Below are positions 42,586-64,000 of a stretch of 64,000 bases of DNA, piece after piece. The stretch is taken from contig NZ_JADKSO010000003.1 of the NCBI RefSeq assembly GCF_015351245.1, positions 186,001 through 250,000 on the forward strand, given 5' to 3'. Source of the DNA: Rathayibacter sp. VKM Ac-2879 (GTDB lineage: Bacteria > Actinomycetota > Actinomycetes > Actinomycetales > Microbacteriaceae). The notes below the pieces were generated by a model that saw only the letters and a program-made list of their open reading frames with translations, ran no database searches and was not told the origin of the DNA. Made by a program: the position numbers and the translations under genes. How positions within the stretch are numbered: the stretch's first letter is position 1; the number at the start of each line of letters is the position of its first letter.

Positions 42586-42639
42586 GAGTCTGTGGATGAC
42601 GACAAGTCTGTGGAAGACAGGGAGTCTGTGGAAGACAGG
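42586..42639 (+). repeat. three tandem 18-bp repeats next to tRNA-Thr
   Basis: Three units, 42586-42603, 42604-42621 and 42622-42639, share GTCTGTGGAxGAC; the last two differ by one base. The array ends 2 bp from the 3' end of tRNA-Thr (which is on the minus strand), between the tRNA and the dacB promoter. On the minus strand each unit contains TTCCACAGAC or ATCCACAGAC. Confidence 0.85.
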
Positions 42640-42641
42640 GA

Positions 42642-42713
42642 GCCGCCTGTGGGAATCGAACCCACGACCTTCTCATTACGAGTGAGACGCTCTGCCGACT
42701 GAGCTAAGGCGGC
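42642..42713 (-). tRNA. tRNA-Thr (anticodon CGT)
   Basis: 72 nt on the minus strand. Acceptor GCCGCCT/AGGCGGC, D-arm GCTC...GAGC, anticodon stem TCTCA/TGAGA around CTCGTAA with anticodon CGT, T-arm GTGGG-TTCGATT-CCCAC. CCA is not encoded. It reads the codon ACG. Confidence 0.97.
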
Positions 42714-56971: not shown

Positions 56972-57135
56972 GTCGTCCACGAGCTGCCCAAGACCCGCTC
57001 GGGAACGATCATGCGACGCCTCCTGCGTGACGTCGCCGAGGGCCGGGCGGTGGGCGGTGGGCGGTGGGCGACACGATGACGCTCGCCGACGCCCAGGTGA
57101 TGTCGGCGATCACCTCCGCGATCGCCGCCGACTGA
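56972..57135 (+). pseudogene. 3' remnant of a second acs gene
   Basis: VVHELPKTRSGTIMRRLLRDVAEGRAVG matches the end of Acs (intact copy: ELPKTRSGKIMRRLLRDVAEGREVG), and after a frameshift GDTMTLADAQVMSAI...AAD stop at 57133-57135 matches its last residues. Codons and G+C differ from the intact copy, so it is not a recent copy. The catalytic Lys codon is Thr here (SGTIMRR). A 7-bp tandem repeat causes the frameshift. It looks like the end of the resident acs left after DNA was inserted. Confidence 0.75.
57049..57069 (+). repeat. 7-bp tandem repeat GGTGGGC x3
   Basis: Three perfect units at 57049-57055, 57056-57062 and 57063-57069 inside the acs remnant. One unit would leave the Acs frame intact; the two extra units add 14 bp and shift it. 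Confidence 0.8.
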
Positions 57136-62213: not shown

Positions 62214-63518
62214 TCAGCGGCCGAGACCGCGGTAGTCCCACCCCGCCTCGCGCCACGCGGCGGGGTCGAGGCAGTTGCGTCCATCCACGATGAAGGCGTT
62301 GCCCACCAGCGCGGCCGTCGCGGCGGGGTCGAGGGCGCGGAACTGCTTCCACTCGGTGACGACGACGACCGCGTCGGCACCGCGAAGCGCCTCCTCGACG
62401 TCGGCGGTGTACGAGATGTCGGGGTAGCGACGCTGCGCGTTCGCGATCGCCTCCGGGTCGGTGGCACGCACGGTCGCGCCCAGGTCGTGGAAGCGGGCTG
62501 CGACGTCGAGCGACGGCGAGTCACGGATGTCGTCCGACTCAGGCTTGAAGGCGAGGCCGAGCACGGCGATGGTCTTGCCGTCGACCGAGCCGCCGAGGCC
62601 CTCGGTGACAATGTCGACCACACGCTGACGGCGACGGAGGTTGATCGCGTCGACCTCCTTGAGGAATGCGACCGAGCCGCCCACGCCGAGCTCTTCGGCC
62701 CGCGCCGAGAACGCGCGGATGTCCTTGGGGAGGCAACCGCCGCCGAAGCCGATGCCAGCATTCAGGAAGCGGCGACCGATGCGCGCGTCGTATCCGATCG
62801 CATCGGCGAGCTGGGTGACGTCGGCTCCCGTGACCTCGGCGATCTCAGCGATCGCGTTGATGAACGAGATCTTGGTGGCGAGGAACGCATTGGCCGACAC
62901 CTTGACGAGCTCGGCGGTTGCGTAGTCGGTCACGACGAGCGGGGTGTCGGCGGCGAGGGCGGTCGCGTAGACCTCGTCGAGAGCGGCACGCGCCGCCTCG
63001 CCTGCAGCACCGGCAGGAACGCCGTAGACGAGGCGGTCGGGGCTGATCGTGTCCTTCACCGCGAAGCCCTCACGGAGGAACTCCGGGTTCCAGGCGAGCG
63101 TCGCGCCGGTCGTGGCGACCCGCTCGGCGAGGCGCGCGGCCGTCCCGACCGGCACCGTCGACTTGCCGACGACGAGCGAGCCGGAGTCGAGGTAGGGAAG
63201 CAGTCCCTCCACGGCCGCGTCGACGAAACGCATGTCGGCCGCATTCTCACCCTGCTTCTGGGGGGTGCCGACCGCGACGAAGTGCACGGAGGCTCCCGCC
63301 GCCTCGGCCATGTCGGTCGAGAACCGCAGGCGGCCCGACGCCACACCGGAGGAGAGCAGCTCGGGCAGACCTGGCTCGAAGAAAGGCGCCGTACCGGCCG
63401 ACAGAGCGTCGATCTTCGCCTGGTCCACGTCGATGCCGATCACCTCGTGACCGAGTTCGACCATCGCGGCCGCGTGAACGGCTCCGAGGTAACCGCAACC
63501 AATAACAGAGAGCTTCAC
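62214..63518 (-). CDS. ugd: UDP-glucose 6-dehydrogenase
   Basis: 434 residues. KLSVIGCGYLGAVHAAAMVELGHEVIGIDVD for NAD, GENAADMRFVDAAVEGL, KSTVPVGTAARL, NPEFLREGFAVKDTISPDR, and GGGCLPKDIRAF with the catalytic Cys (about residue 262). VLGLAFKPESDDIRDSPSLDV is the UDP-binding domain. It oxidises UDP-glucose to UDP-glucuronate for capsule or exopolysaccharide. Start GTG 63518 has AGGAG 7 nt upstream. The initiation region is part of a triplicated 20-bp repeat (63511-63570). Confidence 0.95.
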   Translation of the reverse strand: MKLSVIGCGYLGAVHAAAMVELGHEVIGIDVDQAKIDALSAGTAPFFEPGLPELLSSGVASGRLRFSTDMAEAAGASVHFVAVGTPQKQGENAADMRFVDAAVEGLLPYLDSGSLVVGKSTVPVGTAARLAERVATTGATLAWNPEFLREGFAVKDTISPDRLVYGVPAGAAGEAARAALDEVYATALAADTPLVVTDYATAELVKVSANAFLATKISFINAIAEIAEVTGADVTQLADAIGYDARIGRRFLNAGIGFGGGCLPKDIRAFSARAEELGVGGSVAFLKEVDAINLRRRQRVVDIVTEGLGGSVDGKTIAVLGLAFKPESDDIRDSPSLDVAARFHDLGATVRATDPEAIANAQRRYPDISYTADVEEALRGADAVVVVTEWKQFRALDPAATAALVGNAFIVDGRNCLDPAAWREAGWDYRGLGR

Positions 63519-63570
63519 AGGGGTTCTCCTAGCTTCACAGGGATTCTCCAGACTTCACAGCGGTTTTCCG
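63511..63570 (-). repeat. three 20-bp repeats each holding a start codon and binding site
   Basis: Units at 63511-63530, 63531-63550 and 63551-63570 share, on the minus strand, GGAGAAxCCCTGTGAAGxT (the farthest copy is more diverged). Each contains GTG AAG. Copies 2 and 3 read GTG plus 6 codons then TGA, and that TGA overlaps the GTG of the next copy (GTGA). Two 7-codon mini-ORFs (starting at 63558 and 63538) therefore lead stop-to-start into ugd GTG 63518. Confidence 0.85.
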
Positions 63571-63654
63571 AATCAAGGGCGTCGTTGAGTCGCGTCAGGA
63601 AGGGAGGGAGAGGACGGGCGGAGGCGGCGGAGTCGTCGCGAGCACCGCTCGCGC

Positions 63655-64000
63655 CTATCGCCGCGCCAATGCTCTCAGATCTCGCGCCACGTTGCCGACA
63701 GCGGTCGCTATCTGCTCGGCGACGCGGGCGTGCGTGACCTCGCTCCGGCCGATCGGATCGTCGATGTCGTCGCCGGCGGCCTCGACAGGGGCACGGCCAC
63801 GGTGCGTCGCGGCAAGGCGGACGACGGCGCGGAGGCGAGCCGCCGGATCCTCGATGACAGGCAAAGGGACGTCAGCCACCACGAAGGGCAGCACGCGGGC
63901 GAACTCGAGGAGGGTGAAGCCCCGCAGCAGGACCGCAGGGAAGCGGCGGGCCGCGTCGACCAGATGATCGCGCGTCATCGTCAGCATGAGGTCGGCGCTC
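63655..64000 (-). CDS. low-molecular-weight protein-tyrosine phosphatase, partial
   Basis: The frame is open to the right edge; about 115 residues are visible, ending TAG 63655-63657. SADLMLTMTRDHLVDAARRFP, AVLLRGFTLLEFARVL and DDIDDPIGRS (the DP loop with the general-acid Asp) match the C-terminal two-thirds of LMW-PTP/Wzb. The catalytic CxxxxxR loop is outside the window. Such phosphatases reset tyrosine kinases in exopolysaccharide export, fitting its place beside ugd. It ends with an Arg-rich tail. Confidence 0.82.
   Translation of the reverse strand, partial: SADLMLTMTRDHLVDAARRFPAVLLRGFTLLEFARVLPFVVADVPLPVIEDPAARLRAVVRLAATHRGRAPVEAAGDDIDDPIGRSEVTHARVAEQIATAVGNVARDLRALARR

What the first reader, a model, noticed from the sequence alone, without database searches (positions are those of the whole stretch)
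63511..63570. Triplicated translation-start cassette with two overlapping 7-codon mini-ORFs before ugd
Three tandem 20-bp units each carry a binding-site-like GGAGAA and GTG AAG. Because 20 is not a multiple of 3, each upstream GTG reads 7 codons and stops at a TGA that overlaps the next GTG (GTGA). Ribosomes could start at 63558 or 63538 and be handed on to ugd at 63518 by stop-start coupling. Unit number could tune UDP-glucuronate supply, and so exopolysaccharide, by slippage: a possible translational phase-variation device. The repeat itself is directly visible; the function is inferred.
Basis: partly seen in the sequence, partly recalled or inferred. Interest (0 to 1): 0.7.

Follow-up and report, generated by a model that had tools for sequence, protein, structure and literature searches.

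The report
Start-site repeats forming coupled mini-ORFs
In a Rathayibacter-like bacterium the ribosome landing site of a sugar-modifying enzyme gene has been copied in tandem so that tiny reading frames end exactly where the enzyme gene starts, possibly feeding it ribosomes; this is a neat variant of a known arrangement rather than an on-off switch.

Summary
The repeat is real: three 20-bp units at 63511-63570 (minus strand), with GTGs at 63558, 63538 and 63518 (the ugd start). Two seven-codon frames end in TGAs that overlap the next GTG. One detail is wrong: unit 1 has GGAAAA, not GGAGAA. Of 15 related genomes, 12 have one unit. Three, forming one clade, have two: a seven-codon TTG mini-ORF whose TGA overlaps the ugd GTG. 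Their 32-bp array is identical although the flank has diverged (0 of 32 against 15 of 42 columns variable). So the array looks like a tandem duplication of ugd's own start cassette, conserved where it can be compared. Best reading: RTGA-coupled mini-cistrons, a known actinobacterial architecture, made here by start-cassette duplication. In the same family, Cryobacterium ugd genes often carry an apparently leaderless five-codon mini-ORF with the same overlap (36 of 60 loci; 28 peptides), which supports the idea but proves nothing here. The main rival is a relocated promoter (GAGAAT in the penultimate unit in all four multi-unit leaders), leaving the mini-ORF starts untranscribed. Phase variation is not supported: units have diverged, the ugd frame does not depend on unit number, and number is two in all three species of the two-unit clade.

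The parts
63551..63570 (-). Unit 1 of the start cassette: weak binding-site-like GGAAAA (63569-63564), GTG at 63558
   Evidence: Sequence; 14/20 identical to unit 2
63531..63550 (-). Unit 2: GGAGAA (63549-63544), GTG at 63538
   Evidence: Sequence; 18/20 identical to unit 3
63511..63530 (-). Unit 3: AGGAGAA, GTG at 63518 = ugd start
   Evidence: Sequence; start codon position shared with 15 of 15 relatives
63535..63558 (-). Mini-ORF 1, seven codons plus TGA (MKSGESL), TGA overlaps the GTG of mini-ORF 2
   Evidence: Read
63515..63538 (-). Mini-ORF 2, seven codons plus TGA (MKLGEPL), TGA overlaps the ugd GTG
   Evidence: counterpart MKLGEAL with TTG start in L091, L095, L100
62214..63518 (-). 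ugd, UDP-glucose/GDP-mannose dehydrogenase family protein, 434 aa (substrate not tested)
   Evidence: Pfam PF03721, PF00984, PF03720
63543..63548 (-). GAGAAT, -10-like hexamer in unit 2 (rival promoter)
   Evidence: at -30 from the ugd start in 4 of 4 multi-unit leaders and 0 of 12 one-unit leaders
63572..63577 (-). CTTGAT, place of the (C/T)ACGAT -10-like element of one-unit relatives, altered here
63655..63999 (-). 3' end of the upstream gene; its full relative in L110 is a low-molecular-weight phosphotyrosine phosphatase next to a Wzz/GNVR-type protein
   Evidence: the window fragment alone matches no Pfam family

Best explanation
The array is a tandem duplication (one to two to three copies) of the ugd gene's own 20-bp start cassette (binding site, GTG, first codons). 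Because the period is 2 modulo 3 and the start is GTGA, each upstream copy became a seven-codon mini-ORF that contains the next copy's binding site and ends on the next start. Ribosomes that start on the mini-ORFs terminate on, and can reinitiate at, ugd (RTGA coupling), so the leader works like a natural bicistronic leader that keeps the ugd binding site open and supplied. Shown: anatomy, variation of unit number among species, identity of the two-unit array in three species. Inferred: the direction of change (one copy ancestral), that the mini-ORFs are on the mRNA, are translated, and raise or steady ugd output.
For: 12 of 15 relatives carry a single cassette at ugd and three carry two. The two-unit array is identical in three species whose ugd fourfold sites differ by 27-33%: 0 of 32 array columns vary against 15 of 42 just upstream (Fisher p 6.5e-5; limits chosen after seeing the alignment). 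The upstream start is a valid codon (TTG or GTG) in each upstream unit of the four multi-unit leaders. A tandem-cassette pattern with one mismatch allowed matched 3 of 398 family genomes, each at ugd and without mismatch; I count 3 hits of the reversed-pattern control in the same table. In the Cryobacterium genus group 36 of 60 ugd leaders have TANNNT, 6-8 nt, RTG, five codons, TGA overlapping the ugd start, with 28 different peptides. By a separate scan, of 48 leaders with an RTG 5-9 nt after a TANNNT and upstream of ugd, 46 are in the coupled frame, 2 in the ugd frame and 0 in the third. Mycobacterial RTGA-coupled small ORFs are over-represented and can keep the linkage while the peptide changes (PMC4633059 passages). 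In C. glutamicum, removing the fore-cistron start lowers expression of leaderless bicistronic cassettes (PMC10367133 section 7).
Against: No expression data. -4-overlap mini-ORFs of 20 codons or fewer are common: 32 of 52 NTGA-start ugd leaders among the 73 other loci have one, though only 4 of 52 with an SD-like site. The whole two-unit array is invariant, so constraint on the mini-ORF cannot be separated from constraint on a promoter or binding site. Unit 1 in the window has no GGAG. In the multi-unit leaders the -10-like element of the one-unit leaders is altered or gone and a GAGAAT appears downstream. In one Cryobacterium clade 5 of 17 leaders lack the mini-ORF start. Among 61 loci outside Cryobacterium there is no leaderless coupled mini-ORF (0 of 61, shuffle mean 0.43). 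In the C. glutamicum work cassettes without the fore-cistron start still exceeded the monocistronic design, and the gain vanished only when the SD was mutated, so an SD alone can do part of the work. Cryobacterium counts are of related sequences, not independent events.
Confidence: 0.45

Rival explanations
1. Promoter and binding-site relocation: the duplication gave ugd a new -10 (GAGAAT in the penultimate unit) and a 5' leader of about 18 nt with a complete SD; the mini-ORF starts lie at or upstream of the transcript's 5' end and are relics.
For: GAGAAT sits at -30 from the ugd start in 4 of 4 multi-unit leaders and 0 of 12 one-unit leaders. CACGAT or TACGAT, present in 11 of 12 one-unit leaders at -18/-19, is gone in the window and L091 and altered in L095 and L100. 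Between -60 and -33, 10 of 27 columns vary in the two-unit clade; the one-unit group L094, L098, L101 of comparable divergence varies only at -5 between -51 and -1, and L096, L097, L102, L103 only at -4 between -48 and -1. The more diverged one-unit group L092, L093, L099 varies at six places between -37 and -1.
Against: GAGAAT lacks the T at position 1 of TANNNT. The sigma-70-type scan finds no promoter-like site in 63400-64000, but it expects none either, so that says little. A GTCGC-N4-GCGAC palindrome keeps its distance to the first unit, not to ugd (-43 to -45 in one-unit, -63 to -64 in two-unit leaders), which suggests that regulation still acts upstream of the array; it is not intact in the window.
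Confidence: 0.3
2. Neutral tandem duplication: ugd is translated from the last copy only, and the upstream copies are tolerated.
For: Window units have diverged (14/20 between units 1 and 2) and unit 1 has no GGAG. The leader has no unusual RNA fold (z 1.28).
Against: Identity of the two-unit array in three species against a divergent flank; valid start codons in every upstream unit of the four multi-unit leaders.
Confidence: 0.19
3. Translational phase variation: unit number changes by slippage and switches or tunes ugd.
For: Unit number differs between species (1, 2, 3); 20-bp direct repeats can in principle slip.
Against: Units are imperfect; number is two in all three species of a diverged clade; the ugd frame does not depend on unit number.
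Confidence: 0.03
4. Repeated operator: the 20-bp repeat is a row of binding sites for a regulator, two helical turns apart.
For: Spacing of 20 bp; three exact CTGTGAAG copies.
Against: The bases shared between units are those of a binding site and start codon; one-unit relatives have only the copy that is the ugd start; a separate palindrome upstream is the better operator candidate in relatives.
Confidence: 0.03

Closest known systems
RTGA-coupled small ORFs of mycobacteria (Shell et al. 2015, PMC4633059; passages seen)
   Same: Short ORF whose TGA overlaps the RTG of the next gene; the linkage can be kept while the peptide changes; actinobacteria.
   Different: There the upstream ORFs were found from leaderless transcripts; here there are no transcript data, the mini-ORFs have SD-like sites (weak in unit 1), appear to come from duplication of the gene's own start, and two are chained.
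Bicistronic design leaders, including the leaderless version in Corynebacterium glutamicum (PMC10367133; outline, section 4 part 1 and section 7 seen)
   Same: Fore-cistron with the SD for the main gene inside it and overlapping stop and start.
   Different: Synthetic, with 62-bp fore-cistron sequences and a TAATG junction; here natural, seven codons, GTGA junction.
Mycobacterial interspersed repetitive units, as described in the review PMC12548453 (one passage seen)
   Same: Repetitive sequence with an ORF joined to the gene's start at -4 spacing.
   Different: MIRUs are described there as apparently mobile and inserting at start codons; this unit looks copied from the gene's own start, and a two-unit pattern built on it was found only at ugd in 398 family genomes. 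Usual MIRU unit sizes are recalled, not seen.
Leader genes near structural genes in Actinobacteria (Korolev et al. 2016, PMC4833913; part 1 of 3 seen)
   Same: Short leader ORF proposed to raise translation by reinitiation.
   Different: Their peak is a stop-to-start distance of 10-11 bp and their set excludes overlaps.

Membership tests
RTGA-coupled small ORF | Stop TGA overlaps the RTG start of the downstream gene | tested here: met
   GTGA at 63538 and 63518; also at ugd in L091, L095, L100
RTGA-coupled small ORF | Initiated from a leaderless transcript in the published set | not testable with these tools
   No TSS data; no TANNNT in the 130 nt before the ugd start in the window
RTGA-coupled small ORF | Translated, with coupled translation of the downstream gene | not testable with these tools
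   Needs ribosome profiling or fusions
Bicistronic leader (works like) | Main gene's SD lies inside the fore-cistron and stop and start overlap | tested here: met
   GGA GAA is codons 4-5 of each mini-ORF
MIRU | Interspersed at several loci of the genome | tested here: inconclusive
   a two-unit pattern built on this cassette matched only at ugd (3 of 398 genomes); no further match in the window at 0-2 mismatches, two at 3; the window's own whole genome is not held, and MIRU sequences themselves were not compared
Phase-variable repeat (contingency locus) | Near-identical units whose number varies within a species | tested here: inconclusive
   Units 14/20 to 18/20 identical; number the same in three sister species; no within-species data
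Phase-variable repeat (contingency locus) | Unit number shifts the reading frame of the gene | tested here: not met
   ugd starts inside the last unit, so unit number cannot shift its frame; an effect through promoter spacing was not testable

The most novel reading that the evidence does not exclude
In Microbacteriaceae the ugd gene has more than once been given a coupled mini-cistron whose stop overlaps its start codon: in Rathayibacter by tandem duplication of the start cassette, in Cryobacterium as a leaderless five-codon ORF under selection for length and start but not peptide. Start-cassette duplication with a period of 2 modulo 3 would then be a simple route by which coupled leader ORFs are born.
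Probability: 0.35. Interest if true: 0.55.

Novelty: new variant of a known kind. Interest (0 to 1): 0.4.

Why it matters
Coupled small ORFs are over-represented in mycobacteria (PMC4633059), and one route to them, insertion of MIRUs at start codons, has been described (PMC12548453, passage). Here one-, two- and three-copy states of the same start cassette stand side by side in related species, which would make a second route, birth by duplication of the gene's own start, directly testable. The Cryobacterium comparison offers a candidate natural leaderless bicistronic leader on the same gene, with many peptide variants. Ugd-type enzymes supply UDP-glucuronate (established knowledge of the family; substrate not tested here), so translation of ugd may bear on exopolysaccharide make-up.

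Tried and rejected
Phase variation: rejected as the main reading (diverged units, same number in a clade, frame unaffected). RNA switch or attenuator in the leader: the stretch 63480-63570 folds no better than shuffles (z 1.28; 186 of 200 shuffles fold at least as well). Intrinsic terminator or sigma-70-type promoter in 63400-64000: none found by the scans, which expect about none. Terminator hairpin after the phosphatase gene: suspected by eye; folds of the window stretch and of two relatives have z 0.12, -1.00 and -1.09, so not claimed. The window and the two-unit clade as one exclusive group: rejected by the AU test on five concatenated genes (p 0.007 all positions, 0.002 without third positions); a sixth gene was aligned but not used. 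Independent gains, or one gain with later losses, both remain; deep forks of the tree are weakly supported. By eye there is little microhomology at the duplication ends; not computed. Plasmid collection: one match, 16% of the query. PMC9094748 searched for five coupling terms: no passage. Two searches for MIRU papers gave little: 4 listed, one of them the review used, and 1 unrelated. No paper on this array showed up in the listings (open-licence PMC only; two searches listed 20 of 61 and 8 of 129 papers).

Rows dropped: the 30%-identity second match in G002; four 57-58% identity second copies among the 64 Cryobacterium-group matches; one leader whose last 40 nt repeat another's (59 of 60 distinct). 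Two of 57 Cryobacterium-group genomes had no match at the set limit.

Full report
OBSERVATION. The minus strand reads cGGAAAACCGCTGTGAAGTC, tGGAGAATCCCTGTGAAGCT, aGGAGAACCCCTGTGAAGCT at 63570-63511. GTGs stand at 63558, 63538 and 63518. The claim that every unit carries GGAGAA fails for unit 1. The two seven-codon frames and their TGA/GTG overlaps are as described. The overlap is a necessary result of a 20-bp period and a GTGA start, so it is one fact, not two. Tandem Repeats Finder gives period 20, 3.0 copies, score 79; 1 of 60 shuffled windows reaches 79, and five other rows of the real window score 79 or more.

WHERE IT IS. The window has 70.7% G+C. Its ugd protein is 82-89% identical to the ugd of 15 genomes of one genus group that includes named Rathayibacter records. 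No genome is held for the window itself. Upstream lies the end of a gene whose full relative in L110 is a low-molecular-weight phosphotyrosine phosphatase (PF01451), preceded by a protein with Wzz and GNVR domains; that this is an exopolysaccharide neighbourhood is inference.

RELATIVES. In 12 of 15 genomes the leader has one cassette, for example ACGATTCGGAGAACCCCTGTGAAGCTT. In 3 of 15 (L091, L095, L100) it has two: CGGAGAATCCCCTTGAAGCTTGGAGAAGCACTGTGAAGCTT. The upstream copy begins with TTG, and TTG AAG CTT GGA GAA GCA CTG TGA ends on the ugd GTG, the same geometry as in the window. The three species form a supported clade (99/99; 100/100). Their ugd genes differ at 27-33% of fourfold sites, yet the 32 bases before ugd are identical, while 15 of 42 columns just upstream vary (p 6.5e-5; columns treated as independent, limits chosen after seeing the alignment). 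A pattern for two cassettes in tandem, one mismatch allowed, matched 3 of 398 family genomes, each at ugd without mismatch; I count 3 hits of the reversed control pattern. The window is not an exclusive sister of the two-unit clade (AU p 0.007 and 0.002). On the best tree the state arose twice, or arose once and was lost at least twice; deep forks are weakly supported. That one copy is the older state is inferred from its presence in the outer branch L104/L105 and in 12 of 15 relatives.

TRANSCRIPTION. One-unit leaders have CACGAT or TACGAT at -18/-19 in 11 of 12 cases. In the two-unit leaders L095 and L100 a variant stands at -39, that is the old distance from the first start codon; in L091 and the window it is gone. 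All four multi-unit leaders have GAGAAT at -30, and no one-unit leader has. The stretch upstream of the array varies more in the two-unit clade (10 of 27 columns, -60 to -33) than the matching stretch in two of three one-unit groups; the third, more diverged group also varies. This is the evidence for the promoter-relocation rival. Against it, GAGAAT is a poor -10, and the GTCGC-N4-GCGAC palindrome present in 13 of 15 relatives keeps its distance to the first unit (-43 to -45, or -63 to -64 with two units). In the window the palindrome is not intact. I cannot settle where the mRNA begins.

BACKGROUND FOR MINI-ORFS. A -4-overlap mini-ORF of 20 codons or fewer is not rare: 32 of 52 NTGA-start ugd leaders among the 73 other loci have one, but only 4 of 52 with GGAG, AGGA or GAGG before it; in the genus group plus window it is 5 of 16 and 4 of 16, those 4 being the multi-unit leaders. 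The mini-ORF alone is therefore weak evidence; duplication plus conservation is the stronger part.

CRYOBACTERIUM. Following, 57 genomes of one genus group were searched (55 of 57 with a match; 64 matches, 60 used) and 60 ugd leaders read. 36 of 60 have TANNNT, 6-8 nt, then RTG, five codons and a TGA overlapping the ugd start, with 28 different peptides. Among the 36 distinct leaders with NTG at -14 the first base is A (29) or G (7) and T and G follow. Two of 60 have the ATG one base further up, in frame with ugd. In a separate clade 12 of 17 have a six-codon version and 5 of 17 have no start there. 2 of 60 look leaderless for ugd itself, and 3 of 60 fit none of these. A separate scan for any ATG or GTG 5-9 nt after a TANNNT gives 46 of 60 in the coupled frame, 2 in the ugd frame, 0 in the third frame, 2 on the ugd start itself and 10 with none. 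Counts are of related sequences, not of independent events, and leaderlessness is read from spacing, not measured. Outside Cryobacterium, 0 of 61 loci have a leaderless coupled mini-ORF (shuffle mean 0.43, largest 3) and 5 of 61 have a leaderless-like ugd (shuffle mean 1.41, largest 6).

MECHANISM. The best-supported reading is a coupled mini-cistron leader. Mycobacterial RTGA-coupled small ORFs are over-represented (23 of 220 against 32 of 1000) and sometimes keep the linkage while the peptide changes (PMC4633059 passages). The review PMC12548453 (passages) gives NTGA as the commonest spacing of closely spaced ORFs and names delivery of ribosomes by short ORFs as a proposed function. In C. 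glutamicum, loss of the fore-cistron start lowers expression and mRNA of leaderless bicistronic cassettes, yet these still exceed the monocistronic design until the SD is mutated (PMC10367133 section 7): both the SD and the translated fore-cistron count. None of this is a measurement on the window's leader.

VERDICT. Real; a new variant of a known kind. The mini-ORF function is plausible, not shown; the phase-variation part is not supported.

Noticed in passing
L125-L183, last 30 nt before ugd (Cryobacterium genus group): An apparently leaderless five-codon mini-ORF (TANNNT, 6-8 nt, RTG, five codons, TGA overlapping the ugd start) in 36 of 60 leaders with 28 different peptides; two further leaders carry the ATG in frame with ugd.
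   Followed up: partly
L091-L103, -43 to -45 (one unit) or -63 to -64 (two units) before ugd: Palindrome GTCGC-N4-GCGAC with fixed arms and variable centre in 13 of 15 relatives; not intact in the window, where its place is near 63602-63589: a candidate operator.
   Followed up: partly
L148 and L149, 12 nt before ugd: TAGGCT six nt before the ugd ATG: ugd itself looks leaderless in these two Cryobacterium-group genomes, and similarly (TAGGGT, 6-7 nt) in L056, L075 and L080.
   Followed up: no
window 42586-42642: Tandem array, period 18, 3.2 copies, score 79, consensus GAGTCTGTGGAAGACAGG.
   Followed up: no
window 57045-57070: Exact heptamer repeat GGGCGGT, 3.7 copies; a seven-base unit could slip.
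   Followed up: no
Cryobacterium-group genomes G408, G418, G438, G443 and G154: A second ugd copy at 78-79% identity to the query with its own leader.
   Followed up: no
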